From Serratia silvae (GTDB lineage: Bacteria; Pseudomonadota; Gammaproteobacteria; Enterobacterales; Enterobacteriaceae), in NCBI RefSeq assembly GCF_023282985.1, contig NZ_JAGQDC010000006.1:1-64000 (forward strand): a DNA stretch of 64,000 nt, written 5' to 3'. Position 1 is the stretch's first letter; every line of letters begins with the position of its first letter. The notes beneath the pieces are model-generated. The model ran no database searches, was not told the DNA's origin, and saw only the letters and a program-made list of their open reading frames with translations. Below, in pieces: positions 12,801-62,645 of the stretch. The position numbers and the translations under genes were made by a program.

Positions 12801-15800
12801 GTGAGGCGACTGCCCGGGATCCTGTTAGCCACAGGCGCCAGTTTGATTGTTGTTGTGGCGTTGCTGATCAGCGGGTTGCGTTTGGTGCTGCCCGAGCTTA
12901 ACCACTATCGCCCGTTATTGCTGGAGAAGGTGCAGGCCATCGCCGGGGTGCCTGTCGAAGCCGACTTTGTCCAGGGCAGTTGGGAAACCTTTGGCCCAAC
13001 GCTGGAAGCCCGCAACATCCGTTTGGCCTTGCCAACAAGCAAGATCCAGATCGAACGGGTTACGCTGGCGCTGGACGTGTGGCAATCCCTGCTGCATTGG
13101 CGCTGGCAGTTCCGCGATCTCACCTTCTATCAACTGCAGCTCGATCTTGACGCGACGCTCGGGGGAGAAGGCAGCAATGGCAATGGCCTTACCCCGAACG
13201 GAGTCAGCGATCTGTTCCTGTATCAGCTGGATCACTTTGATCTGCGCAACAGCCGCCTCTCGTTCCTTACCCCATCAGGCTCCCGTGCTGAATTCCATAT
13301 CCCGCAAATGACCTGGCTTAACAGCCATAATCGCCATCGCGCGGAAGGCCAAATCAGCCTGACCAGCCTGAATGGCCAGCACGGGGCGGTACAGCTACGC
13401 CTGGATCTGCGGGATGAACAGGGGTTGCTCAACACCGGCACCATCTATATGCAGGCCGATGCGATTGATATGAAGCCCTGGTTCAGCCGCTGGCTGCAAA
13501 CCAATACCGGTCTCGAAAGCGCCGACTTCAGCCTGGCAGCCTGGCTCAATATCAAAAATGGCGACATCTACAGTGGTAATGCCCTGCTTAATAAAGGCAC
13601 TGCCAGCTGGTCGGTGGGCAGCGACCAACACCGGCTGGACGTCGATAATCTGGCGTTGGCAATGAGCCGCGAGGGTAGCGGCTGGCAGGTACATGTGCCT
13701 GCCCTGAACCTGAAAACCGATGGTCAAGTCTGGGCACCAGGAACCCTTACTGCGCTGTGGCTGCCGGAAAATACCCAATTTATCGGGCCAAACCAGAGTG
13801 AAGAACTCCGTATCCGTGCCACCGGCATCCAGCTGGAACGGTTGGAAGCATTGCTGCCTACCTTCTCGTTCCTCAGCCCGGACGTGCTAGAGCACTGGAA
13901 AGACTTACAACCTCGCGGCATGCTCAGGGCGCTGGCGCTGGATATTCCGTTGCAGCAGCCGGAAAAAACCCGTTTTCAGGCATGGTGGCAGGATCTGAGC
14001 TGGCAACACTGGAAACTGTTGCCGGGCGTCGATCACTTTTCCGGTGCGTTAACCGGGGGGGTAGAAAACGGCCGTCTGACGCTGGGGCTGAACAACAGCA
14101 CGCTGCCTTATGGCGATATGTTCCGAGCACCGTTGGAAATCAGCAGTGCCAGCGGGGCGCTGACCTGGCAAAACAACGATCAAGGCTGGCAATTGGCCAG
14201 TAAAAACCTGGATGTGCAAGCCAAATCCCTGTGGATTAACGGTGATTTCCGCTATCAGCAACCGGCCAACGGCGAGCCTTGGCTGGATATTCTGGCAGGC
14301 ATCCGTTTGTATGACGGCGCTGATGCCTGGCGTTATTTCCCTGAACCGCTGATGGGTAAACATTTGGTGGATTATCTCAGCGGGGCGATCCAGGGCGGGC
14401 AGGTTGATAATGCTTCCCTGATTTATGCGGGCGATCCGCAGCACTTCCCGTATGAGAAGAACGAAGGGCAGTTTCAGGTGTTTGTCCCACTACGCCACGC
14501 TACCTTCCAGTTTCAGCCGGAATGGCCAGCGCTGAACGATCTGGCGATCGACCTCGACTTTGCCAACAATGGCCTGTGGATGAATGCGCCGCAAACCAAA
14601 CTGGGCAACGCGACGGGCAGAAATATTAGCGCCGTCATTCCGGACTATAGCAAACAACGCCTGTTGATTGATGCCGACGTTGCGGGTACCGGGCAAGCTA
14701 TCCACGACTATTTCATGCAGACCCCACTGGATGACTCTGTCGGGGCGGCATTAGATGAGCTGCAGGTGGGTGGCAATGTAAGTGGGCGCTTACATCTGAA
14801 TATTCCGTTGGACGGTGAGCTGGTTAACGCCAGCGGTGAAGTGACGCTGAATAACAACTCGCTGTTGGTCAAGCCGCTGGAGAGCCAGCTAGAGAGAGTG
14901 AGCGGCAAGTTCCGTTTCGACAACGGCAACCTGCAGAGCGATACCCTGACGGCCAACTGGTTTGGGCAGCCGCTGACGGTCAACTTCGATACGCTGGAAG
15001 GCAAACAGGATTATAAGGTTAACGTTGGGCTGAAAGGCGATTGGCAACCGGCTAAGGTTGAAGGCCTGCCGCCAGAGTTTGCCAAAATGTTGGCAGGCAG
15101 CGCCGCCTGGCAAGGTAAAGTGGCGATCAACCTGCCGCATAAAGGCCAGCCGAGCTATGAGATTGGCGTGAATGCCGATCTGAAAAAAGTAAGCAGTCAC
15201 TTACCTTCTCCCCTGAATAAAGCCGCAGGGGAAGCGTTACCGGTCAGCGTAAAAGTGAATGGCGGCCTGCAAGGATTTATGCTCAATGGCAGTGCTGGCA
15301 AGCAAAACCACTTCAACAGCGAATGGCTGCTGGCCAAACAGCAGGTGACGCTGGCACGTGCCGCCTGGCAAACCGGCGGTTTCTCGACCCCAACGTTACC
15401 CAAAGATAAATCCCTGGTGCTTAATCTGCCCGAGCTGGATGGCGAGCAATGGCTGGGGCTATTGGCACCGGCGATGAAGCAAAGCAGCGGTGCAGGCAAG
15501 GTGGGCAACTTTGTGTTCCCAACCAGCGTAACGCTCGAAACCCCACAGCTGACGCTGGGCGGACAGGCGTGGCATAACCTTCAGCTGGCGGTCGTGCAGC
15601 AGTTGGCGGGAACGACCGTCACCGCCAAGGGTAAAGAGATTGATGGTAGCCTGTCGATGCCGGATAAGGGCGTGTGGCGCGCGGATCTTGGCTATCTTTA
15701 CTACAACCCGCAGTTTGCCAGCGGCGACGGCAGTGCTGGCGGAACCAACCCGCTGGACTCGGCGGAGCGGATCTCGTTACAGGATTGGCCTTCGTTGATG

Positions 15801-39340: not shown

Positions 39341-39359
39341 TTGCAAACTCTTTTTGCAA
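39341..39359. promoter_or_regulatory. TTGCAAA-N5-TTTGCAA inverted repeat
   Basis: Perfect 7-bp arms (39341-39347 and 39353-39359) flank a 5-base spacer in the gap between rnk and the SFCGS operon. It has the size of a regulator binding site. The protein that would bind it is unknown. Confidence 0.4.
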
Positions 39360-39420
39360 TCTCATTTACTTAGCGTAAAAACCCCCGGTTTTGCGAAATG
39401 GATCCCCTGGCGTCACTTAA

Positions 39421-39440
39421 TTTCCAGTTCGAACTGGAAA
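39421..39440. promoter_or_regulatory. perfect 20-bp palindrome, candidate operator of the SFCGS operon
   Basis: TTTCCAGTTC immediately followed by its reverse complement GAACTGGAAA forms an uninterrupted 20-bp palindrome. It is 118 bp upstream of the first gene of the 39.6-45.2 kb operon. It is the strongest DNA-binding-site candidate in the 421-bp gap and may be the target of the PRD activator encoded at 46518-48434. The rest of the gap holds no recognisable gene. Confidence 0.6.
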
Positions 39441-39493
39441 AAAACGCGCTACACAAGCAATGCCCCAAAGGTTAGGGTAAAGACATCAAAGAA

Positions 39494-39522
39494 AGCGGGT
39501 AAAGGAAAAGCGCTTTACCGCT
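39494..39522 (+). promoter_or_regulatory. leader hairpin of the SFCGS operon
   Basis: GGTAAAG (39498-39504) pairs with CTTTACC (39513-39519), extended on both sides with one bulge, 37 bp before the first operon start. It may be an mRNA leader structure or a second operator. Confidence 0.4.
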
Positions 39523-39558
39523 AACGGATAAATAGCTGGATCCAGAGGTGACTGCAAA

Positions 39559-39906
39559 GTGAATGACGGAACTGCTTCGGTAAGTAACAGGGAACAGACT
39601 GATATCAGTGAGGCCGCAGCGATTACCACTCAACTGCTGGCCGATATTACTGCCATGTTGGGTGAAGAAAATATTTATACCAATGCGGTGCAACAACAAA
39701 TGTTGGAGTCTCATATCCGCGCGATGGTGTTGCGCTCAATAACGGGTGAACCCTTGCCGGAAGTTGATAAATCACTGTTTGATGAAATTTCTGCCGGTTC
39801 GATGCGGCTGGCAGAGCGAGTGGTAAATAAGTTTTCCACGTTACCGATTGAAGAGGCGTATCTGCTTTCGGTTCATTTTGAAGTGGCTAAAGATAACGAC
39901 CAATAG
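39559..39906 (+). CDS. stand-alone PRD-domain protein
   Basis: The 115-residue protein consists of one PTS regulation domain (PRD) without DNA-, RNA- or PTS-enzyme domains. The PRD-like helices include QQMLESHIRAMVLRSITG, with a central histidine, and IEEAYLLSVHFEVAK. It starts with GTG after AGAGG. PRDs are normally phosphorylated on histidine by PTS proteins, so this may sense or relay the state of the putative transporter encoded next. It opens the operon, 37 bp before the SFCGS gene. Confidence 0.75.
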   Translation: MNDGTASVSNREQTDISEAAAITTQLLADITAMLGEENIYTNAVQQQMLESHIRAMVLRSITGEPLPEVDKSLFDEISAGSMRLAERVVNKFSTLPIEEAYLLSVHFEVAKDNDQ

Positions 39907-39943
39907 CATTTAATCCATTAAAATTATTCAGGAGAAGAACCCC

Positions 39944-40309
39944 ATGGGACAAATTACCGTAGTGATCGGCGATCGGCTGGGTAAAGGCCAGAAAGTGGGC
40001 CAGGGCGTTGAGAATGCAGGTGCCAAGGCGATTGTGATCCCTGGCATGGCGGCGGATATGAAGCTGGGCGATGTGATGAAAGCAGAGAATGCGCAATTGG
40101 GCATTTCCTTCTGTGGCAGCGGCGGTGCCGGGGCAATTACGGCACAAACCAAATATGGTTATAAATCCAGATATGGTATGCGTTCTATCGAAGAAGGCGT
40201 GACGGCAATTAACGAAGGCTGCAATGTATTAGGCTTTGGCTTTATGGATAAAGAAGAATTAGGCCAGCGGCTAGTAGAAGCGTATGTCAAAAAATACGGC
40301 AATCCTTAA
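39944..40309 (+). CDS. glycine-rich SFCGS-family protein
   Basis: The 121-residue soluble protein contains the name-giving segment GISFCGSGGAGAITAQ near residue 53 and a nucleotide-binding-like N-terminus (ITVVIGDRLGKGQKVGQ). The cysteine in the glycine-rich loop is placed much like the phosphorylated cysteine of PTS EIIB proteins; that comparison is an inference, not an established function. A strong Shine-Dalgarno AGGAGAAG precedes the ATG. Its stop overlaps the DUF4312 start by one base. The family occurs only with DUF4310-4312 genes as far as I recall. Confidence 0.8.
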   Translation: MGQITVVIGDRLGKGQKVGQGVENAGAKAIVIPGMAADMKLGDVMKAENAQLGISFCGSGGAGAITAQTKYGYKSRYGMRSIEEGVTAINEGCNVLGFGFMDKEELGQRLVEAYVKKYGNP

Positions 40310-40605
40310 TGAAAGAAACTTATACCACCTCGGTTAACGTAGAGGGCAAAGGCGATAGTAAAGCTAAAGCCTTTGCCGGTGCATTAGCGAATGTACAGGG
40401 CGTGATTTTAAAATCCACCAATAATGTTCTGCTGCGTATCGAACCGCAGGACGTCAAAATATTAAAGGCGGAAGAGAAAACTACCAAAGAAAAATTTCTT
40501 TTCTTCTTCCTGGCACGCGAAAGAAAAAGCTATGCCGTTTCATTAGAAATAACCGTGAACGTGACGATCATCAATACCGAAAAGGTGGTCTTCACCCAGA
40601 AATAA
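40309..40605 (+). CDS. DUF4312 family protein
   Basis: The 98-residue protein is soluble, begins with KETYTTSVNVEGKGDSKAKA, and has a C-terminal beta-strand region (SYAVSLEITVNVTIINTEKV). It matches DUF4312, a family of unknown function encoded between the SFCGS and DUF4311 genes. Translation is coupled to the upstream gene (TAATG). A cytoplasmic subunit of the transport complex is the most likely role. Confidence 0.78.
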   Translation: MKETYTTSVNVEGKGDSKAKAFAGALANVQGVILKSTNNVLLRIEPQDVKILKAEEKTTKEKFLFFFLARERKSYAVSLEITVNVTIINTEKVVFTQK

Positions 40606-40610
40606 AAACG

Positions 40611-40650
40611 TTATATCCGTCGTGTTTCAAGCTACAGCAGCTATGGCTGC
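40611..40650. repeat. possible ERIC end fragment
   Basis: TATATCCGTCGTGTTTCAAG and the following CTACAGC resemble the left end of the ERIC elements at 54100 and 62521, but the central and right parts are missing. It lies in the 86-bp gap between the DUF4312 and DUF4311 genes. Confidence 0.4.
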
Positions 40651-40691
40651 GTCTTGGGATCCACTGGGCATGACATAAGAAGGATATTCTG

Positions 40692-41468
40692 ATGTTTTTA
40701 ATCATCTTATTTAAGTCGATTATTATCGGCGGGCTGGTTGGCGTCGGTGTAGGGGCTGGTGCCGCACGTATGTTCCACGCACCGACGACGCAGGGTATGG
40801 GGGCGTTCCGTACCTTGGGTGAGCTGAACTCCTGCGAAGGCGATCCGGCTTCTCATTTCTCATTTGGTCTGGGCTTCTTCTTCAACGCCTGGGCGTCTTC
40901 TGTGGCGGCGGGGGCCTTCACGCAGGACGTTGACCATCGCATCATTCCTAACTGGGGCGCAGCAGCCCTGATGATCAAAAACCGCAACGTTGCGGAAACC
41001 ATGCACGATCCAAAAAAGATGGCCATCGCGTGCGGCATCATCGGCATTCTGGTCGTGGCCTTCCTTAATACCACCGCTTCGGCAGTGCCTGCGGCCTTGC
41101 AGGTTACGGCCATCAAAGTGCTGGTTCCGGCGGCCAACCTGCTGGTGAACACCGTCATGCCGGTGATCTTTTGGCTGGCGGCGATTGAAGCGGGCAAACG
41201 TTCTGGCTTCTGGGGCACCATCTTCGGTGGTCTGGCACAGCTGATCATGGGGAACGCCGTACCGGGTCTGGTGCTGGGTATCCTGATTGGTAAGGGCGTT
41301 GAAGAGAGCGGCTGGAATAAAGTCACCAAGATCATGATGGTGGCGATTGTGCTGCTGTTCGTGCTGAGCGGCTTCTTCCGCGGCTTTGATATGAAAGTTC
41401 TCGAGTCCTTCAGCCTGGGCGTGCCTGGCTGGCTGGATGCCATTCATAACACCCTGAGCGGAAAATAA
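40692..41468 (+). CDS. DUF4311 membrane protein, putative transporter subunit
   Basis: The 258-residue protein has about seven hydrophobic helices with glycine-rich loops (IIGGLVGVGVGAGAARMFHA, then LGELNSCEGDPASHFSFGLG) and the conserved polar segment AFTQDVDHRIIPNWGAA. It fits DUF4311, an uncharacterised family always paired with DUF4310. The pair probably forms the membrane channel of the system. It is 8 bp upstream of DUF4310. Confidence 0.8.
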   Translation: MFLIILFKSIIIGGLVGVGVGAGAARMFHAPTTQGMGAFRTLGELNSCEGDPASHFSFGLGFFFNAWASSVAAGAFTQDVDHRIIPNWGAAALMIKNRNVAETMHDPKKMAIACGIIGILVVAFLNTTASAVPAALQVTAIKVLVPAANLLVNTVMPVIFWLAAIEAGKRSGFWGTIFGGLAQLIMGNAVPGLVLGILIGKGVEESGWNKVTKIMMVAIVLLFVLSGFFRGFDMKVLESFSLGVPGWLDAIHNTLSGK

Positions 41469-41476
41469 GGAGCTGA

Positions 41477-42130
41477 ATGATGGAAGCACAAGCAGACAAA
41501 GGCTTCTGGTATGCCGACTGGTCGTTCCCGATTTTTGTTGGCCTGCTCTCGTCCGGCGTGTTCGCCGGGACACACATGTATTACCTGTATGGCATAGGCG
41601 CGTTTAACGAAGTGGCTTTCGTTTCCATGCTGCGTGCCGGGATGGATACCGGAGTTTACGGTGCGGTGGCGGCGTTCGGTGCCAGCTTCCTGTTTGCCCG
41701 CATTATCGAAGGTTCTCTGGTAGGGATCCTGGATATTGGCGGGGCGATCCAGACCGGGGTTGGCCTGGGTGTTCCTGCGCTGTTGCTGGGCGCGGGGATT
41801 GTTTTCCCGGTAGCCAACTTTGCCGCCTCGCTGGTTACTGGCCTGGTCATTGGCCTGGCGATTGGTTACCTGATTATCCTGGCGCGTAAATTTACCATCA
41901 ATCAGAGCAACTCCACCTACGGGGCGGACGTGATGATGGGGGCAGGTAACTCTTCCGGGCGTTTCCTTGGGCCGTTGATCATCCTGTCTGCCATGGCCGC
42001 TTCGATCCCGATTGGTCTGGGTTCCCTGCTGGGTGCGCTGCTGTTCTACATCTGGGGCAAGCCGATCACCGGCGGCGCGATCCTGGGGGCCATGATCTTG
42101 GGGGCATTCTTCCCGGTAGCCATTTCTTAA
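41477..42130 (+). CDS. DUF4310 membrane protein, putative transporter subunit
   Basis: The 217-residue protein has about six helices and belongs to DUF4310. Conserved-looking polar sites are MYYLYGIGAFNEVAFVSMLR and STYGADVMMGAGNSSGRFLG. AAGGAG precedes two adjacent ATG codons (41477 and 41480), and either could be the start. It is the last transport gene; a 14-bp-stem hairpin follows at 42136-42170. Confidence 0.8.
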   Translation: MMEAQADKGFWYADWSFPIFVGLLSSGVFAGTHMYYLYGIGAFNEVAFVSMLRAGMDTGVYGAVAAFGASFLFARIIEGSLVGILDIGGAIQTGVGLGVPALLLGAGIVFPVANFAASLVTGLVIGLAIGYLIILARKFTINQSNSTYGADVMMGAGNSSGRFLGPLIILSAMAASIPIGLGSLLGALLFYIWGKPITGGAILGAMILGAFFPVAIS

Positions 42131-42135
42131 TCAAG

Positions 42136-42170
42136 TGCCAACCCCTGGGTCAACCGCCCAGGGGTTGGCA
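42136..42170 (+). promoter_or_regulatory. 14-bp-stem hairpin between transport and catabolic genes
   Basis: TGCCAACCCCTGGG (42136-42149) and its exact reverse complement (42157-42170) enclose a 7-base loop. There is no T-run. The ribosome binding site AGGAG of the next gene starts one base after the stem. The hairpin could stabilise the upstream mRNA, cause partial termination, or modulate translation of the deacetylase gene. Confidence 0.7.
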
Positions 42171-42184
42171 AGGAGTAGCGAAGC

Positions 42185-43324
42185 ATGTATGACCTAATCA
42201 TCTGGCGCGCCAGGTTGGTGGACGACACCCTGGCCGATGTGGCTATTGAGGCCGGTAAGATTGCCGTAGTCGGGCAATTGGCGGCAGATGCCAGCGCCCA
42301 CAAACAACTGGATCTGGCGGGGAACTACCGCCTGAGCGCTGGCTGGATCGACTCCCACGTACACTGTTATCCCTCTTCACCGATTTATCATGACGACCCG
42401 GACCTGGTGGGCGTGAGCAGCGGTGTCACCTCGGTGGTCGACGCAGGCAGCACCGGCACAGACGATATCGATGAATTCTATGCTCTGACGCGCAGCGCCA
42501 AAACCAACGTCTTTGCCTTTCTCAATATCTCGCGCATCGGCCTGTTAAGGCAGAATGAACTGGCCGATCTGGCGGATATCAACAAGCAGCGAGTCAAACA
42601 GGCCATCGCCGGTAAGCCGGGATTTGTCATTGGTATCAAGGCGCGTATGAGCAGCAGCGTCGTGGGCCAGAACGGCACCAAACCGTTGGTATTGGCCAAA
42701 GAGATCCAAGGGGAAAATCAGCAACTGCCGCTGATGGTACACATTGGTAACAACCCGCCGGATCTGGACGAGATTGCCGATCTACTGACTCAGGGCGACA
42801 TCATCACTCATTGCTACAACGGCAAACCGAACCGCATTCTGACCCCGGCTGGTACGCTGCGTGAGTCGATCCAACGTGCGTTAAAACGTGGCGTGCTGCT
42901 CGACGTGGGCCACGGCTCGGCCAGCTTCAGCTTTGAGGTGGCCCGCCAGGCCATCGCGCTAGGGATCTTCCCACACACCATCAGTTCCGATATCTACTGC
43001 CGCAACCGTCTGGCTGGCCCAGTGCACAGCCTGGCGACGGTGATGTCCAAATTCTTTACCGTTGGGCTTTCTCTGGCGCAGGTCATTGGCTGCGTAACGG
43101 AAAATGCCGCTGCGGCGTTGCGCCTGACCACCAAGGGGCAGTTGAAACCTGGCTTTGATGCCGACCTGACCATTTTTGATCTCCGCCAGGGGCCGCAGGT
43201 GTTTGCCGACTCCGAAGGGGAGTCCGTGAATGGCGAACAGCTGTTGGTGCCGCTGGCTGCCGTGGTGGCCGGGGAAGTCCTATTAACCGATCAAGGGAAA
43301 GCCGCTCATGTCTTCAATCTATGA
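42185..43324 (+). CDS. amidohydrolase/deacetylase-family metallohydrolase
   Basis: The 379-residue enzyme has the amidohydrolase-superfamily fold: the metal-binding HxH in GWIDSHVHCYPSS near residue 59, a bridging lysine in VIGIKARMSSS near 153, histidines in LMVHIGNNPPD and LLDVGHGSASF, and the catalytic aspartate in HTISSDIYCRN. In this cluster it probably removes an N-acyl group from an amino sugar acid, possibly phosphorylated. The substrate is inferred. Its 3' end overlaps the DgaE-like gene by 17 bp. Confidence 0.85.
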   Translation: MYDLIIWRARLVDDTLADVAIEAGKIAVVGQLAADASAHKQLDLAGNYRLSAGWIDSHVHCYPSSPIYHDDPDLVGVSSGVTSVVDAGSTGTDDIDEFYALTRSAKTNVFAFLNISRIGLLRQNELADLADINKQRVKQAIAGKPGFVIGIKARMSSSVVGQNGTKPLVLAKEIQGENQQLPLMVHIGNNPPDLDEIADLLTQGDIITHCYNGKPNRILTPAGTLRESIQRALKRGVLLDVGHGSASFSFEVARQAIALGIFPHTISSDIYCRNRLAGPVHSLATVMSKFFTVGLSLAQVIGCVTENAAAALRLTTKGQLKPGFDADLTIFDLRQGPQVFADSEGESVNGEQLLVPLAAVVAGEVLLTDQGKAAHVFNL

Positions 43325-44426
43325 AAAATATAACTTAAAGCAGGTGATCAACACTTCCGGCCGCATGACCATTCTCGGTGTTTCGACGCCACGCCAGGAG
43401 GTGATTGACGCCGTGGATTATGGCCTGAATCATTACTTTGAAATCAAGGATCTGGTCAACAAGACCGGCGCCTATATTGCCGGTCTGTTGAATGTGGAAG
43501 ACGCAGTGGTTGTTTCCTGCGCCTCTGCCGGTATTGCCCAGTCGGTGGCGGCGGTGATCGTCAAGGACAACGCCAACCTGTTGGTCAACCTGCATTCGGC
43601 CACGGTGAACGAACCACGCGAGATCGTGTTGCCGCGTGGCCATAACGTCAACTTCGGTGCTCCGGTGGATACCATGGTCGCTCTAGGCGGCGGCAAGGTG
43701 GTGGAAGCGGGCTATGCCAACGAATGTTCCCCAGAGCAGATTGAAGCCTGCATCAACCCGCAGACCGCGGCCATTCTCTACATCAAATCTCACCACTGCG
43801 TGCAGAAAAGCATTCTCTCAATCGAGCAGGCGGCCGTGGTGGCGCGTAAACATAACCTGCCGTTGATCGTTGATGCCGCAGCCGAAGAAGACCTGATGTG
43901 TTACTACCAGATGGGGGCCGATCTGGTGATCTACAGCGGTGCCAAGGCCATCGAAGGGCCAACCAGCGGGCTGGTGATCGGCAAGAAGCAATACGTGGCG
44001 TGGGTGAAGCTGCAGTCTGGCGGTATTGGCCGGGCGATGAAGGTGGGCAAAGAGGGCATCCTCGGCCTGACGCAAGCGATCGAAAGCTACCTGACGTCGG
44101 AGAAAACCACCGGTGCGCAAATGGTAGAGCGCATGACGCCGTTTATCAGCCAACTGAATACCCTGAATGGCATCAGCGCCAAAACCGTCTGGGACAGCGC
44201 AGGGCGCGATATTGCCCGCGTGGAAATCACCTTTGATGAAGCGGTGCTGGGGATATCGACCGTCGACATCGTCCAGCGGCTGAAAACCGGGGATATCGCC
44301 ATCTATTTCCGTGGCTACAAGGCCAACGAAGGCAAGGTTGAGGTGGATGTCCGTAGCGTGAACGAGCAGCAACTGATGACCGTCTTTACCTGTATCAAAA
44401 ATCTTTTTACGGAGACCCAAGCATGA
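43308..44426 (+). CDS. DgaE-family PLP-dependent ammonia-lyase
   Basis: This 372-residue protein is related to SelA-like PLP enzymes and to Salmonella DgaE. DgaE dehydrates/deaminates D-glucosaminate-6-phosphate to 2-keto-3-deoxygluconate-6-phosphate (KDGP) and ammonia. The PLP-binding lysine is probably in DLVIYSGAKAIEGPTSGLV near residue 212, preceded by the PLP aspartate in LPLIVDAAAEEDL. It overlaps both neighbours, so the three enzyme genes are tightly coupled. The exact amino sugar acid may differ from glucosaminate. Confidence 0.85.
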   Translation: MSSIYEKYNLKQVINTSGRMTILGVSTPRQEVIDAVDYGLNHYFEIKDLVNKTGAYIAGLLNVEDAVVVSCASAGIAQSVAAVIVKDNANLLVNLHSATVNEPREIVLPRGHNVNFGAPVDTMVALGGGKVVEAGYANECSPEQIEACINPQTAAILYIKSHHCVQKSILSIEQAAVVARKHNLPLIVDAAAEEDLMCYYQMGADLVIYSGAKAIEGPTSGLVIGKKQYVAWVKLQSGGIGRAMKVGKEGILGLTQAIESYLTSEKTTGAQMVERMTPFISQLNTLNGISAKTVWDSAGRDIARVEITFDEAVLGISTVDIVQRLKTGDIAIYFRGYKANEGKVEVDVRSVNEQQLMTVFTCIKNLFTETQA

Positions 44427-45163
44427 AGCTGAAGCCTAATTACTATAAAGACCGAGTTTGCCTTAACGTACTGGCTGGCTCAAAAGCCAACGCGCAGGAC
44501 ATCTATAATGCGGCGCAGGGGCATGTGCTGGTGGGCGTTCTTTCCAAAAATTATCCTGACGTTGAGAGCGCGGTGGCGGATATGTCGCGTTATGCCAGCC
44601 TGATCGAGAACGCGCTTTCCGTGGGCCTGGGGGCTGGCGATCCCAAGCAGTCGAATATGGTCAGCCTGATCTCCGAGCACGTCCAACCCCAGCATGTGAA
44701 TCAGGTATTCACCGGTGTCGGTGCCAGTCGTGCACTGCTGGGGCAAAACGAAACCGTGGTGAATGGTTTGGTCTCCCCGACTGGCCGCGTGGGCTGGGTG
44801 AAGATTTCCACCGGGCCGCTGAGTGCTCAGGCGCCGGATGGCATTGTGCCGGTAGAGACCGCGATTGCGTTGTTGAAAGATATGGGCGGCAGCTCGATTA
44901 AGTATTTCCCGATGGGCGGTCTGAAGCATCAGGACGAATATGAGTACGTGGCGAAAGCCTGTGCCGAGCATGACTTTATGCTGGAGCCGACCGGCGGCAT
45001 CGATCTGGAAAACTTCGAACCGATCCTGGAGATTGCGTTGAAAGCCGGTGTGAAGCAGGTGATCCCACATATCTATAGTTCCATCATTGATTCCGCCAGT
45101 GGCGATACTCGTCCGCAAGATGTCAAAACTCTGCTGGAGATCACCAAGCGGCTGGTGGGGTAA
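44423..45163 (+). CDS. DgaF-like KDGP aldolase
   Basis: The 246-residue protein resembles Salmonella DgaF, which splits 2-keto-3-deoxy-6-phosphogluconate into pyruvate and glyceraldehyde-3-phosphate. A lysine in SSIKYFPMGGLKH near residue 158 corresponds to the Schiff-base region of KDPG-type aldolases, and the C-terminal VIPHIYSSIIDSASG is conserved-looking. It ends the catabolic part of the operon, 4 bp overlapped with the DgaE-like gene. Confidence 0.85.
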   Translation: MKLKPNYYKDRVCLNVLAGSKANAQDIYNAAQGHVLVGVLSKNYPDVESAVADMSRYASLIENALSVGLGAGDPKQSNMVSLISEHVQPQHVNQVFTGVGASRALLGQNETVVNGLVSPTGRVGWVKISTGPLSAQAPDGIVPVETAIALLKDMGGSSIKYFPMGGLKHQDEYEYVAKACAEHDFMLEPTGGIDLENFEPILEIALKAGVKQVIPHIYSSIIDSASGDTRPQDVKTLLEITKRLVG

Positions 45164-45193
45164 ACCCTGTACTCCTGAGCCGCATGCTCCCTT

Positions 45194-45211
45194 GGGGCAT
45201 TTTGTTGCCCC
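45194..45211 (+). terminator. weak hairpin after the aldolase gene
   Basis: GGGGCA (45194-45199) and TGCCCC (45206-45211) enclose a T-rich loop 30 bp after the aldolase stop and 25 bp before the lactonase start. There is no T-run after the stem, so read-through into the lactonase gene is likely. Confidence 0.4.
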
Positions 45212-45235
45212 TATCTATCGGTTAAAAGGATAACT

Positions 45236-46465
45236 ATGCGAAACTGGCAGGCTTCGAATTTACGAATTGCTCCGCTGTGGAACGCGCTGTCCCTGGCGTT
45301 GTTGGCTATCGCCAGCCCGGCGTTACATGCTGAGGATGCAATGAAATCCACGTCGTCTCATTTTGCCTATATTGGTACCTATAACCCGAACGGTGAGGGG
45401 GTTTACCGTATGCAGGTGGATGCGAAAACCGGGGCGCTGAGTGCCAAGACGCTGGTCAGCAGCCTGCCTAATCCGGCCCAGCTGGTCGCCGATGCCAAAG
45501 GGCAGACGCTATACGTTGCCAGCGAGGTGGCAGATTTTAATGGCACCGAGCACGGGGGCATTGTCGCCTATCGCATCAACCCACAGGACGGCACCCTGAC
45601 GCCGCTTAATCAGGTGGATTCACAGGGGGCGGGGCCGGTTTACCTTTCTCTGACGCCGGATGGCCGTCATCTGCTGGTGGCTAACTACGTCAGCGGCAGC
45701 GTTGCGGCGTTCCCGGTAGACAGCGAAGGCAAGTTAGGAGCCGCCAGTTCCGTGCAACAAGATGCAGGCCCGGCGGGAGCGGCCAAACCCGCCGCCGCAG
45801 TGGAAGGCAGCTTCGCCATCAGCGATCACAATGGCCCACATGCGCATATGATCGCCAGCGATCCGAGCGGCAGGTTTGTGTTCTCTACCGATCTGGGGCT
45901 GGATCGGATCTACCAGTGGCGTTTTGATGCCGCCAGCGGCAAGCTGACTCCGAACGATCCTCCGTGGATTGCTGCTTCTTCCGCAGGAGCCGGCCCGCGC
46001 CACTTCATATTTCACCCAAATGGTAAAATTGTCCTACTAATCAACGAGGAAGCATCTACACTAACCAGCTACCACTTTGATAGCCAAAAGGGGACGCTGA
46101 CACAGTTGCATGCTGTTTCAACCTTGCCAGCCGATTATAAGGGCACCAGCTTTGCCGCTGGCATGGCTTTGGCAGCAGATGGTAAAAATTTGTATGTCGC
46201 CAACCGCCTGCACAACAGCATTGCGCAGTTCAGCGTAAGCGGCGAAGGTGAACTGAAACCGGTGGCGGAGACCTGGACGCGAGGCGATTACCCGCGCACC
46301 ATCACCCTGGATCCGAGTGGCCGCTATCTGTATGCCATGAACCAGCGTAGCGATAACGTTACGCGCTTTAGCGTAGACCAGCTCAGCGGCAAGCTCAGTT
46401 TCGTGGAAGGCTACACTCCGGTGGGAAGCCCTTCACAAATGGTGTTCTTGCCAGCTGCGAAGTAA
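45236..46465 (+). CDS. secreted lactonase, seven-bladed beta-propeller family
   Basis: The 409-residue protein belongs to the 6-phosphogluconolactonase (Pgl/YkgB) beta-propeller family. It differs from cytoplasmic E. coli Pgl in having a signal peptide (about residues 1-32, ending SPALHA). Repeated propeller strands occur, for example YIGTYNPNGEGVYRMQVDAK, VYLSLTPDGRHLLVANY and ITLDPSGRYLYAMNQRSDN. Outside the cytoplasm it could open a sugar lactone before uptake as the aldonate. It sits between the catabolic operon and its presumed regulator. Confidence 0.83.
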   Translation: MRNWQASNLRIAPLWNALSLALLAIASPALHAEDAMKSTSSHFAYIGTYNPNGEGVYRMQVDAKTGALSAKTLVSSLPNPAQLVADAKGQTLYVASEVADFNGTEHGGIVAYRINPQDGTLTPLNQVDSQGAGPVYLSLTPDGRHLLVANYVSGSVAAFPVDSEGKLGAASSVQQDAGPAGAAKPAAAVEGSFAISDHNGPHAHMIASDPSGRFVFSTDLGLDRIYQWRFDAASGKLTPNDPPWIAASSAGAGPRHFIFHPNGKIVLLINEEASTLTSYHFDSQKGTLTQLHAVSTLPADYKGTSFAAGMALAADGKNLYVANRLHNSIAQFSVSGEGELKPVAETWTRGDYPRTITLDPSGRYLYAMNQRSDNVTRFSVDQLSGKLSFVEGYTPVGSPSQMVFLPAAK

Positions 46466-46517
46466 TCAGTTGCCTGCCTGGGTACCCTCGGGTGGGCACG
46501 TTAATAACGGAAAGAGA

Positions 46518-48434
46518 ATGGTGAGATTTCCCTACCCACGTTTGGCATCGCTGTTCGATGCTTTGCAGTCCGAAACGTTGCCACAGGACGAACTGGCAAA
46601 GCGTTTTGCCGTGTCTACCCGTACAGTACGTGCCGATATCACCGCGCTGAACGATATTCTGGAGAGTTATGGTGCGCAGTTTGTCCATAGCCGCGGGGCC
46701 GGATACCGCTTGCAGGTTGATGATGAGGCCCGGTTTAGTGCGCTCCAGCATCGGGAACGTAAACAGCACGCCACGCCGCGCAGCGCGCAGGAACGGGTGC
46801 ATTATCTGTTGATTCGCTTTTTGACCTCAGCCTTCTCAATGAAGCTGGAAGATCTGGCCGATGAATGGTTTGTCAGCCGGGGTACGCTGCAAAACGACAT
46901 GGCTGAGGTGAGGGAGCGTCTGGCGCATTACCAGTTAACCATCGAAACCAAGCCGCGCTACGGTATGAAGCTGTTTGGTGCGGAAATGGCAATCCGCGCC
47001 TGCCTGACTGATCTGTTGTTTCAACTGCATCTGGCGGATGCGGAAAACCCATTGCTGAACAATGATATCCTCCACCAGCCGCAGGTACGGACTTTTGCCG
47101 GGCTGCTGCACCCGCTGCTGTCACAATATGCCATTCGTCTGACCGATGAGGGTGAGCAATATCTGATCTTCTACTGTGCTGTGGCGCTGCGGCGCATCAC
47201 AGACGGCTATCCGCTTCAGGATTTTGACGTGGAAGACGGTGATGATGCGGTGCGTAAAGCGTCCACCTGGCTGGCGGGTGAACTGAGTAAGGCCACGGGC
47301 AAAGAGATTGCGGCGGCGGAAGAGGCTTATTTGCGGGTCAACATCGCTGCCAGAAGGGTGCAAGAAGTGCAGCCGACCAAAATCAACGCCGATGATGAAG
47401 AGGCGCTGGTGGATTACATCCTGTCCTATATCAACTCGCACTATAACTACAACCTGCAGAGCGACAAGCAGCTACGGGCCGATCTGCTCACCCATATCAA
47501 AACCATGATCACCAGGGTGAAATACCAGATCAATATCCCTAACCCGCTGTTGGCCAACATCAAACAGCATTATCCGATGGCCTATGATGTGACGTTGGCG
47601 GCAGTCTCAAGCTGGGGAAAACACACGCCTTATACCCTGAGCGAGAATGAAATCGGCTATCTGGTGCTGCATATTGGCGTGGGCCTGGAGCGGCACTACA
47701 ACATTGGCTATGAGCGCCACCCGCACGTGATGCTGGTGTGCGATACCGGTAACTCCACGGTGAGGATGATCCAGGCACAGATTGCGCGCAAGTACCCGCA
47801 GCTGGTGGTGACGCGCATCGTTTCGCTGCGTGATTACGAAATGCTTGGCAGTATCGACGAAGATTTTATCATTTCCAATGCGCGCATCAGTGAGAAGAAC
47901 AAGCCGATCGTGGTGATGTCGCCGTTTCCAACGGAGTATCAGCTAGAGCAGTTGGGCAAGCTGGTGCTGGTCGACCGCACCAAGCCGTATATGTTGGAAA
48001 AATTTTTTGATGCCAGCCACTTCATGATCGTCAACGAGCCGTTAACGCAGGAGCAGCTGTTTAGCAAAGTTTGCGCTCAGTTGGAGCAGGAAGGTTATGT
48101 GGGCAGTGATTTTTACCCTTCGGTCGTTGAGCGGGAGGCCATTGTTTCTACCTTGCTGGGGGAGGGGATTGCTCTGCCGCACTCCCTGGGGCTGTTGGCG
48201 AAAAAGACCGTGGTGGTCACGCTGCTGGCACCGCAGGGTATTCCGTGGGGAGAAGGTGAGGTGGCACACGTCATTTTCTTGCTGGCGATCAGCAAAAGCG
48301 ATTATGAGGAAGCGATGGCGATCTACGAGCTGTTCGTTACCTTTGTGCGCGAACGTTCGATGACCCGCTTGCTGGGTAGTGACAATTTCGACAGCTTCAA
48401 AGCGGTGGCGTTGGACTGCCTGAGCCGTATTTAA
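46518..48434 (+). CDS. PRD-containing transcriptional activator with EIIB and EIIA domains (BglG/MtlR type)
   Basis: The 638-residue regulator has an N-terminal HTH (LPQDELAKRFAVSTRTVRAD), a second HTH (MKLEDLADEWFVSRGTLQND), two PRDs (about 170-390), an EIIB-like domain with its cysteine in MLVCDTGNSTVRM, and a C-terminal EIIA domain of fructose/mannitol type with its histidine in EGIALPHSLG. This is the MtlR/LicR-type DNA-binding architecture; no RNA-binding CAT domain is seen. The start at 46518 follows GGAAAGA. It presumably controls the upstream SFCGS operon according to PTS phosphorylation. Confidence 0.88.
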   Translation: MVRFPYPRLASLFDALQSETLPQDELAKRFAVSTRTVRADITALNDILESYGAQFVHSRGAGYRLQVDDEARFSALQHRERKQHATPRSAQERVHYLLIRFLTSAFSMKLEDLADEWFVSRGTLQNDMAEVRERLAHYQLTIETKPRYGMKLFGAEMAIRACLTDLLFQLHLADAENPLLNNDILHQPQVRTFAGLLHPLLSQYAIRLTDEGEQYLIFYCAVALRRITDGYPLQDFDVEDGDDAVRKASTWLAGELSKATGKEIAAAEEAYLRVNIAARRVQEVQPTKINADDEEALVDYILSYINSHYNYNLQSDKQLRADLLTHIKTMITRVKYQINIPNPLLANIKQHYPMAYDVTLAAVSSWGKHTPYTLSENEIGYLVLHIGVGLERHYNIGYERHPHVMLVCDTGNSTVRMIQAQIARKYPQLVVTRIVSLRDYEMLGSIDEDFIISNARISEKNKPIVVMSPFPTEYQLEQLGKLVLVDRTKPYMLEKFFDASHFMIVNEPLTQEQLFSKVCAQLEQEGYVGSDFYPSVVEREAIVSTLLGEGIALPHSLGLLAKKTVVVTLLAPQGIPWGEGEVAHVIFLLAISKSDYEEAMAIYELFVTFVRERSMTRLLGSDNFDSFKAVALDCLSRI

Positions 48435-62520: not shown

Positions 62521-62645
62521 ATACCCGTCGTCTTTCAAGCTGCAGCGTTGTTATCTGCACTCGCCCACCCCAGTCACTTACAAAAGTAAGCTCCTGGTGA
62601 TGAACGAGCTTGTCGCCTAGCCGCAGCTTGAAATCTATAGGGTAT
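62521..62645. repeat. ERIC element (about 125 bp)
   Basis: Complementary ends (ATACCC and GGGTAT) and the core CCCCAGTCACTTAC and GTAAGCTCCTGGTG identify an ERIC element. It lies in the yrbG/mlaF divergent region, 20 bp upstream of the yrbG start, where it may separate the two promoters. Confidence 0.9.

What the first reader, a model, noticed from the sequence alone, without database searches (positions are those of the whole stretch)
39341..48434. Putative undescribed transport and catabolic system built on SFCGS/DUF4310/DUF4311/DUF4312 proteins
Five small or membrane proteins of unknown function (stand-alone PRD, SFCGS, DUF4312, DUF4311, DUF4310) are followed by a deacetylase, a DgaE-like ammonia-lyase and a DgaF-like aldolase, then a secreted lactonase and a PRD/EIIB/EIIA activator. 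Salmonella dga genes use a mannose-type PTS (EIIABCD) in this position. Here the unknown proteins take that place, so they may form a new type of phosphorylating or PTS-regulated permease. The gene set and order are seen directly; the function is inferred.
Basis: partly seen in the sequence, partly recalled or inferred. Interest (0 to 1): 0.88.

Follow-up and report, generated by a model that had tools for sequence, protein, structure and literature searches.

The report
Undescribed PTS-linked amino-sugar-acid uptake operon
A ten-gene bacterial operon pairs three enzymes that would break down an acetylated amino-sugar acid with a five-protein module of unknown function that sits where related operons carry a phosphotransferase sugar importer, so it may be a new way of importing and perhaps phosphorylating such acids.

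Summary
Gene set and order are confirmed (operon 39559-48434; 39341 lies in the leader). Curators already know the cluster: eight of the ten genes pass an NCBIfam cut-off, seven under names EF_08xx. No paper found assigns the module a function.

In 73 loci with full surroundings PRD-SFCGS-DUF4312-DUF4311-DUF4310 nearly always stay together. Two sister DgaE-DgaF operons have mannose-type PTS genes in that place, which suggests uptake. PTS linkage: two Bartonella operons are followed by an HPr-EI gene, and the stand-alone PRD keeps two histidines in 77 of 77. Phosphorylation is only inferred: a PfkB kinase lies near DgaF in 1 of 54 loci without MupG, yet the lyase keeps the arginines docked to phosphate.

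Against a classical EII: SFCGS has an RpiB/LacAB fold, DUF4312 is perhaps dodecin-like, and DUF4310/4311 show no sequence relation to mannose EIIC/EIID; their fold is unresolved. A palindrome at 39421-39440 is the likely operator. Likely substrate: N-acetylglucosaminate or an epimer. No link to chitin LPMOs was found.

The parts
39421..39440 (.). Likely operator: perfect 20-bp palindrome TTTCCAGTTCGAACTGGAAA in the leader
   Evidence: TTTCC-N10-GGAAA or TTGCAC-N8-GTGCAA in 55 of 83 upstream regions (28 lack it); shuffles mean 0.04, max 1; random windows of the same loci mean 1.66, max 5. Only match to a 20-base consensus in the 64-kb window at up to 2 mismatches; chance 0.01.
39559..39906 (+). 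Stand-alone PRD protein, 115 aa, candidate phosphorylation sites His52 and His106
   Evidence: TIGR03582 2.8e-38; both His in 77 of 77 aligned relatives (positions)
39944..40309 (+). SFCGS protein, 121 aa, RpiB/LacAB fold predicted, invariant Cys57 in the CGSGGAGA loop
40309..40605 (+). DUF4312 protein, 98 aa, beta-alpha-beta-beta fold predicted, perhaps dodecin-like
40692..41468 (+). DUF4311 integral membrane protein, 258 aa
   Evidence: PF14188; several hydrophobic stretches by hydropathy
41477..42130 (+). DUF4310 integral membrane protein, 217 aa
   Evidence: PF14187; several hydrophobic stretches by hydropathy
42185..43324 (+). Amidohydrolase-superfamily deacetylase, EF_0837 family
   Evidence: TIGR03583 8.4e-160; solved relatives 8wzy, 2ics, 2ogj
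43308..44426 (+). DgaE-family PLP ammonia-lyase
   Evidence: TIGR01437 4.1e-178; below the DgaE equivalog cut-off (375 vs 600 bits); Arg301/332/346 equivalents conserved
44423..45163 (+). DgaF-family KDGP aldolase
   Evidence: PF07071 2.9e-108; NF047796 392 bits, cut-off 300
45236..46465 (+). Lactonase with a hydrophobic N-terminus (likely secreted)
   Evidence: PF10282 1.7e-102; hydrophobic stretch at residues 9-32; labelled in 2 of 73 loci with full surroundings
46518..48434 (+). PTS-regulated activator: HTH_11, Mga, PRD, EIIB-like CDTG motif, EIIA_2
   Evidence: Pfam; CDTG and PHS motifs

Best explanation
The operon is a PTS-linked uptake and catabolic system for an N-acetylated 2-amino-aldonic acid, most likely N-acetyl-D-glucosaminate or an epimer. 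DUF4311 and DUF4310 form the inner-membrane translocator; SFCGS, DUF4312 and the stand-alone PRD are its cytoplasmic partners, and the PRD couples it to HPr by histidine phosphorylation. The acid reaches the cytoplasm as (or is soon turned into) its 6-phosphate, is deacetylated, deaminated by the DgaE-family lyase and cleaved by the KDGP aldolase to pyruvate and glyceraldehyde-3-phosphate. The lactonase, likely secreted, opens the lactone form outside. The terminal PRD/EIIA activator probably drives the operon from the palindrome at 39421-39440. Shown here: gene content, conservation, PTS genes in the same place in two sister operons, an HPr-EI gene after two Bartonella operons, conserved residues, palindrome. 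Inferred: transport, complex formation, phosphorylation, substrate, order of steps, activator binding.
For: Replacement: L163 (G166, same family as the window) reads sigma-54/PRD regulator-EIIA-EIIB-EIIC-EIID-DgaE-DgaF (Pfam) and Vagococcus L173 the same by order and size, its EIIC and EIID confirmed by family; neither has the deacetylase. G166 also has the module operon (L174). Cohesion: in 73 loci with full surroundings DUF4311 and DUF4310 are labelled in 73, SFCGS 72, PRD 71, DUF4312 70; PRD is adjacent to SFCGS in 71 of 71 (loci were chosen by having DUF4310). The PRD stays in 5 Companilactobacillus loci with no activator in the locus (one PRD ORF is short); 2 of the 5 were scanned and have a GntR/UTRA gene in front, so the PRD seems part of the module and not only of the regulator. 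PTS: HPr-EI fusion after the activator on a Bartonella plasmid (domains in HY406; same gene in HY761) with GLHARP and GGATSH motifs. Phosphorylated intermediate: PfkB near DgaF in 15 of 18 MupG+ loci but 1 of 54 MupG- loci; the equivalents of Arg301/332/346, docked by hand to phosphate in Salmonella DGL (PMC9529869), in 22 of 22 chosen lyases and in every residue present in 78 aligned lyases of module loci.
Against: No EIIA/EIIB-like domain was found in the module; SFCGS is RpiB-like. The DUF4310/4311 model is poor (pLDDT 67.8, pTM 0.49) and matched no fold, so transport rests on context and hydropathy. G423 (L083) has the module but no detectable EI or HPr, though its activator frame is broken and runs into the contig end. 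The EI search model also matches nitrogen-PTS EI, so its 39 of 40 is weak evidence. The PRD is fused to the activator in L028, which favours a regulatory role. L044 lacks PRD, SFCGS and DUF4312 and L017 lacks a full DUF4310. Arg conservation could reflect descent. Only a PfkB model was used to look for kinases. The loci are related, so counts are not independent.
Confidence: 0.55

Rival explanations
1. The module is a non-phosphorylating transporter and the PTS acts only through the PRDs as a regulator. A kinase elsewhere in the genome, such as a KDG kinase, supplies the phosphate, as in the ong pathway.
For: The ong pathway deacetylates and deaminates GlcNAc1A before KdgK phosphorylates KDG (PMC9537276, passages). 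The PRD is fused to the activator in L028. The small proteins are not EIIA/EIIB-like. One module genome lacks detectable EI and HPr.
Against: PfkB near DgaF is rare without MupG (1 of 54) and common with it (15 of 18); the phosphate arginines of the lyase are kept; the stand-alone PRD persists in loci without the activator. Kinases elsewhere in these genomes were not searched.
Confidence: 0.3
2. The module is not a transporter but a membrane-bound enzyme or sensor complex built on an RpiB-type isomerase fold; another importer brings the substrate in.
For: SFCGS has an RpiB/LacAB fold with a conserved cysteine loop. In L016-type operons a separate PTS EIIC is present as well. Module and activator stand apart from the enzymes in L027, L028 and L030.
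Against: In the maps the module-only operons show no further transporter-like gene between the labelled genes (unlabelled ORFs were only read in part); the module sits where PTS genes sit in the two sister operons.
Confidence: 0.12
3. It is a disguised mannose-family PTS: DUF4310/4311 are EIIC/EIID and the small proteins EIIA/EIIB.
For: Same genomic position and a similar number of parts.
Against: Profile comparison with 59 EIIC and 75 EIID sequences gives at most 2 percent probability; SFCGS is RpiB-like.
Confidence: 0.03

Closest known systems
Salmonella D-glucosaminate dga operon (DgaABCD, DgaE, DgaF)
   Same: DgaE- and DgaF-family enzymes, adjacent and in the same order in the sister operon L163
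   Different: Uptake there is by a PTS made of DgaABCD that gives glucosaminate-6-phosphate (PMC9529869, part 1 of 3 read); here a five-gene module, a deacetylase and a different activator. The sister operon L163 has a sigma-54/PRD regulator.
ong pathway for N-acetylglucosaminate (GlcNAc1A), Pseudoalteromonas (PMC9537276, passages)
   Same: Deacetylation, deamination and KDG-6-phosphate as intermediate
   Different: Sodium-solute symporter OngIT, OngB, OngC and KdgK; no PTS part is mentioned in the passages seen
Conserved cluster of NCBIfam models EF_0829-EF_0833, EF_0837, EF_0839 (AHA_3910-3914, 3917)
   Same: Seven genes pass these models' cut-offs
   Different: The models are of type hypoth_equivalog and give no function for the module
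RpiB/LacAB isomerases (SFCGS) and dodecin (DUF4312)
   Same: Predicted fold (clear for SFCGS, weak for DUF4312)
   Different: Sequences far apart; isomerase activity or flavin binding untested

Membership tests
EF_08xx/AHA_39xx conserved cluster (NCBIfam) | Core genes above the curated cut-offs | tested here: met
   TIGR03582, 03577, 03578, 03580, 03579, 03583 and 03581 all above cut-off
Mannose-family PTS permease | EIIC and EIID sequence families | tested here: not met
   No Pfam match at E up to 1; hhalign at most 2 percent with EIIC (59) and EIID (75)
Mannose-family PTS permease | EIIA and EIIB domains in the module | tested here: not met
   No Pfam match in the five proteins at E up to 1; SFCGS model matches RpiB
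Mannose-family PTS permease | Membrane fold | tested here: inconclusive
   Model pLDDT 67.8; no clear match
PTS-dependent system | EI and HPr available in the genome | tested here: inconclusive
   EI model in 39 of 40 genomes or records searched, of 41 asked (also matches nitrogen-PTS EI); HPr in 7 of 8; G423 has neither. The window's own genome was not searched for EI or HPr; it has mannose EIIC and EIID.
PTS-dependent system | Phosphoryl transfer to the substrate | not testable with these tools
   Needs biochemistry
dga pathway | DgaE-type lyase | tested here: inconclusive
   Subfamily TIGR01437 met (592 bits, cut-off 385); equivalog NF047797 375 bits, under its cut-off of 600
dga pathway | DgaF-type aldolase | tested here: met
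   NF047796 392 bits, cut-off 300
dga pathway | DgaABCD permease beside the enzymes | tested here: not met
   No EIIA/B/C/D gene in the window operon
RpiB/LacAB fold (SFCGS) | Fold | tested here: met
RpiB/LacAB fold (SFCGS) | Isomerase activity | not testable with these tools
   The CGSG cysteine is kept; other catalytic residues not mapped
Dodecin (DUF4312) | Dodecin fold | tested here: inconclusive
ong pathway | OngB, OngC, OngIT, KdgK | not tested
   Known here only from passages of PMC9537276; sequences not compared

The most novel reading that the evidence does not exclude
A phosphotransferase-type group translocation system assembled from parts unrelated to any known EII: phosphate passes from HPr to the histidines of a stand-alone PRD, on to the invariant cysteine of an RpiB-fold protein (SFCGS), and to the sugar acid as DUF4311/DUF4310 bring it across the membrane, with a dodecin-like protein as scaffold.
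Probability: 0.18. Interest if true: 0.92.

Novelty: new variant of a known kind. Interest (0 to 1): 0.66.

Why it matters
If the module imports (and perhaps phosphorylates) sugar acids, it is a transport family to which the family libraries searched here assign no function, found in Enterococcus, lactobacilli, Bacillus, Klebsiella, Providencia, Chromobacterium and others. A PTS built from a PRD and an RpiB-fold protein would widen the accepted list of PTS parts. It would also be a candidate PTS-linked route for N-acetylglucosaminate beside the ong pathway; a proteomic study of Aeromonas could not confirm the ong-type route there (PMC11653859, passages), and an Aeromonas record holds most of this cluster (L017).

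Tried and rejected
LPMO link: if the substrate came from the host's own LPMO-oxidised chitin, AA10 genes should co-occur. In one order sample (197 genomes in each), 7 of 21 genomes with DgaF over the cut-off have AA10 and 41 of 176 others do (Fisher p 0.30); the window's own genome has none. Not supported.

Weak DUF4311 hits in Bacillota (3 of 10 below the cut-off): 2 were read and look like an MFS-type protein by eye; dropped. The E. coli control in that call rang below the cut-off and was not followed. No relative in viral contigs or, by blastn with DNA, in the E. coli collection.

CRP site: best matches to a recalled consensus reach 9 of 10 bases in 7 of 34 upstream regions but 7 of 10 in the window; no chance control was run. 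A crp mark on STM4441-2 stands in a table of PMC11000858 (passage). That STM444x are the Salmonella orthologues is recalled and inferred from locus position, not tested.

My pattern was one base too long and found nothing; corrected. The palindrome patterns counted were chosen after seeing palindromes in 34 regions, so that count is not blind.

Rows dropped before counts: one search left out the window itself, short loci L002-L013, duplicates L001, L011 and L018, L017 (no DUF4310 label), loci without the module (L163, L169-L173), and loci with under 5 kb upstream or 6 kb downstream of DUF4310. One search used ORFs above a length limit, identical ones once. One search used 83 loci, 72 with DgaF; a PfkB counted only within 1.5 kb of DgaF (L078 has one further off; L055 has a ribokinase-like ORF 2 kb off, by eye).
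Full report
Observation. The ten genes are present in the order given and match curated families. The operon runs from 39559 to 48434 with gaps of -17 to 86 nt. The leader before it holds a perfect palindrome at 39421-39440. The genome has one copy of DUF4310.

Distribution. DUF4310 is over the cut-off in 12 of 398 sampled Pseudomonadota genomes and DUF4311 in 7 of 398 Bacillota genomes. In the plasmid collection 6 records match DUF4310, 5 of them over most of its length, two being Bartonella plasmids.

Cohesion. In 73 loci with full surroundings, chosen by having DUF4310, DUF4311 is labelled in 73, SFCGS in 72, PRD in 71, DUF4312 in 70, deacetylase and lyase in 70, activator and aldolase in 68. 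The PRD lies next to SFCGS in 71 of 71 loci that have both as separate genes. Exceptions: L028 has the PRD fused to the activator; L044 lacks PRD, SFCGS and DUF4312 even at a loose limit; L017 (Aeromonas) has only a fragment of DUF4310. The counts include close relatives and are not independent.

The PRD belongs to the module. Five Companilactobacillus loci have no activator in reach, yet keep the PRD (four full-length, one short ORF); the two scanned have a GntR/UTRA regulator in front. This is the best argument that the PRD is more than an extra domain of the activator. The L028 fusion argues the other way. Activators elsewhere in these genomes were not searched.

Replacement of the PTS permease. 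G166, in the window's family, has the module operon (L174) and a second operon with a sigma-54/PRD regulator, EIIA-man, EIIB-sorbose, EII-Sor, EIID, DgaE and DgaF, without the deacetylase (L163). Vagococcus L173 looks the same; its EIIC and EIID are confirmed by family, EIIA and EIIB by size and position only. A third type, EIIC-small protein-MupG-deacetylase-DgaE-DgaF-PfkB, stands alone in L170-L172, from the three genomes (L027, L028, L030) in which module and activator stand apart from the enzymes. In L016-type operons the two are joined.

PTS link. In Bartonella HY406 and HY761 the operon is followed by a gene for a PEP-protein phosphotransferase; in HY406 it is an HPr-EI fusion with GLHARP and GGATSH motifs. 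The EI N-domain model matches 39 of 40 operon-bearing genomes or records (41 asked, one not held), but it also matches nitrogen-PTS EI. The exception, G423, also lacks HPr; there the activator's frame is interrupted and the contig ends inside it. The PRD has two histidines in 77 of 77 and SFCGS one cysteine in 91 of 91. An EI beside the operon could serve the activator alone, so it does not prove phosphorylating transport.

A phosphorylated intermediate. A PfkB gene lies within 1.5 kb of the aldolase in 15 of 18 loci with MupG and 1 of 54 without (Fisher 1e-11, not corrected for relatedness). One of the three MupG loci without it is cut by the contig end. Where a phospho-glycosidase would release an unphosphorylated acid there is usually a kinase; in module-only operons almost never. 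Other kinase families and kinases elsewhere in the genome were not searched. The equivalents of Arg301, Arg332 and Arg346 are kept in 22 of 22 chosen lyases and in all residues present in 78 aligned lyases; in Salmonella DGL the phosphate was docked there by hand (PMC9529869, part 1 of 3). Of the two histidines called strictly conserved in that paper, the first is Ala in 2 of 78, the second kept in 78. These points are indirect.

Operator. TTTCC-N10-GGAAA (Proteobacteria) or TTGCAC-N8-GTGCAA (Firmicutes) occurs in 55 of 83 upstream regions, against a shuffle mean of 0.04 and 1.66 in random windows of the same loci; 54 of 63 hits in 1.59 Mb lie in these regions. The patterns were chosen after seeing palindromes in 34 regions, so the count is not blind. 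L163 and L170-L173 have none. That the activator binds there is inferred.

Substrate. Deacetylase, DgaE-family lyase and KDGP aldolase fit N-acetylglucosaminate or an epimer; the lactonase fits a sugar lactone outside the cell, but is labelled in only 2 of 73 loci. The known ong pathway for GlcNAc1A uses different proteins (PMC9537276, passages). A link to AA10 LPMOs was not found.

Print. A search for DUF4310, DUF4311, DUF4312 and SFCGS listed 7 papers, all on other subjects by title and abstract start. Searches gave nothing that assigns the module a function, as far as listings and the passages opened show. Gene-level mentions exist: EF0839 and EF2975 as divergent eda-like enzymes that may contribute to fitness (PMC7701990, passages), an ef_0839/ef_2975 promoter in a urine screen (PMC2912369, passages), and STM4441-2, STM4442 and STM4446 in Salmonella lists (PMC11000858 and PMC3420936, passages; orthology recalled). 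The library is limited to open licences; Miller et al. 2013 is not held.

Verdict. A real, conserved, PTS-linked operon with an unassigned module in the transporter position. Uptake is likely, phosphorylation plausible and unproven, classical EII membership not supported.

Noticed in passing
L015:8047-10062, L018:15405-17420: PEP-protein phosphotransferase gene (HPr-EI fusion in HY406) directly after the operon on two Bartonella plasmids, beside type VI secretion genes.
   Followed up: partly
40622-40638 and 62530-62546: A short element between DUF4312 and DUF4311 has a second copy with 2 mismatches in the window (chance 0.18).
   Followed up: no
L170, L171, L172: Separate EIIC-small protein-MupG-deacetylase-DgaE-DgaF-PfkB operons, without the operator palindrome; the one regulator scanned (L170) is GntR/UTRA.
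   Followed up: partly
L169:7597-10776: Remnant of the operon with short pieces of SFCGS, deacetylase, aldolase and activator around a full-length lyase.
   Followed up: no
L164, L168: In two genomes the operon lies next to an HPr-like ORF (90-138 aa) beside a gene that looks like RapZ (name recalled).
   Followed up: no
14483-14901, - strand: Rfam match to Rev11, a soft-rot Enterobacteriaceae antisense RNA, just over its gathering score (91.8 vs 91.3).
   Followed up: no
L083:14929-15608: Activator frame interrupted at a repetitive tract in a genome without detectable EI and HPr.
   Followed up: partly
L017: Aeromonas caviae record with PRD, SFCGS, DUF4312, DUF4311 and activator but only a 41-residue match to DUF4310.
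   Followed up: no
L015:4081-5193: The Bartonella lyase has Ala in place of the first of the two active-site histidines (2 of 78 lyases).
   Followed up: no
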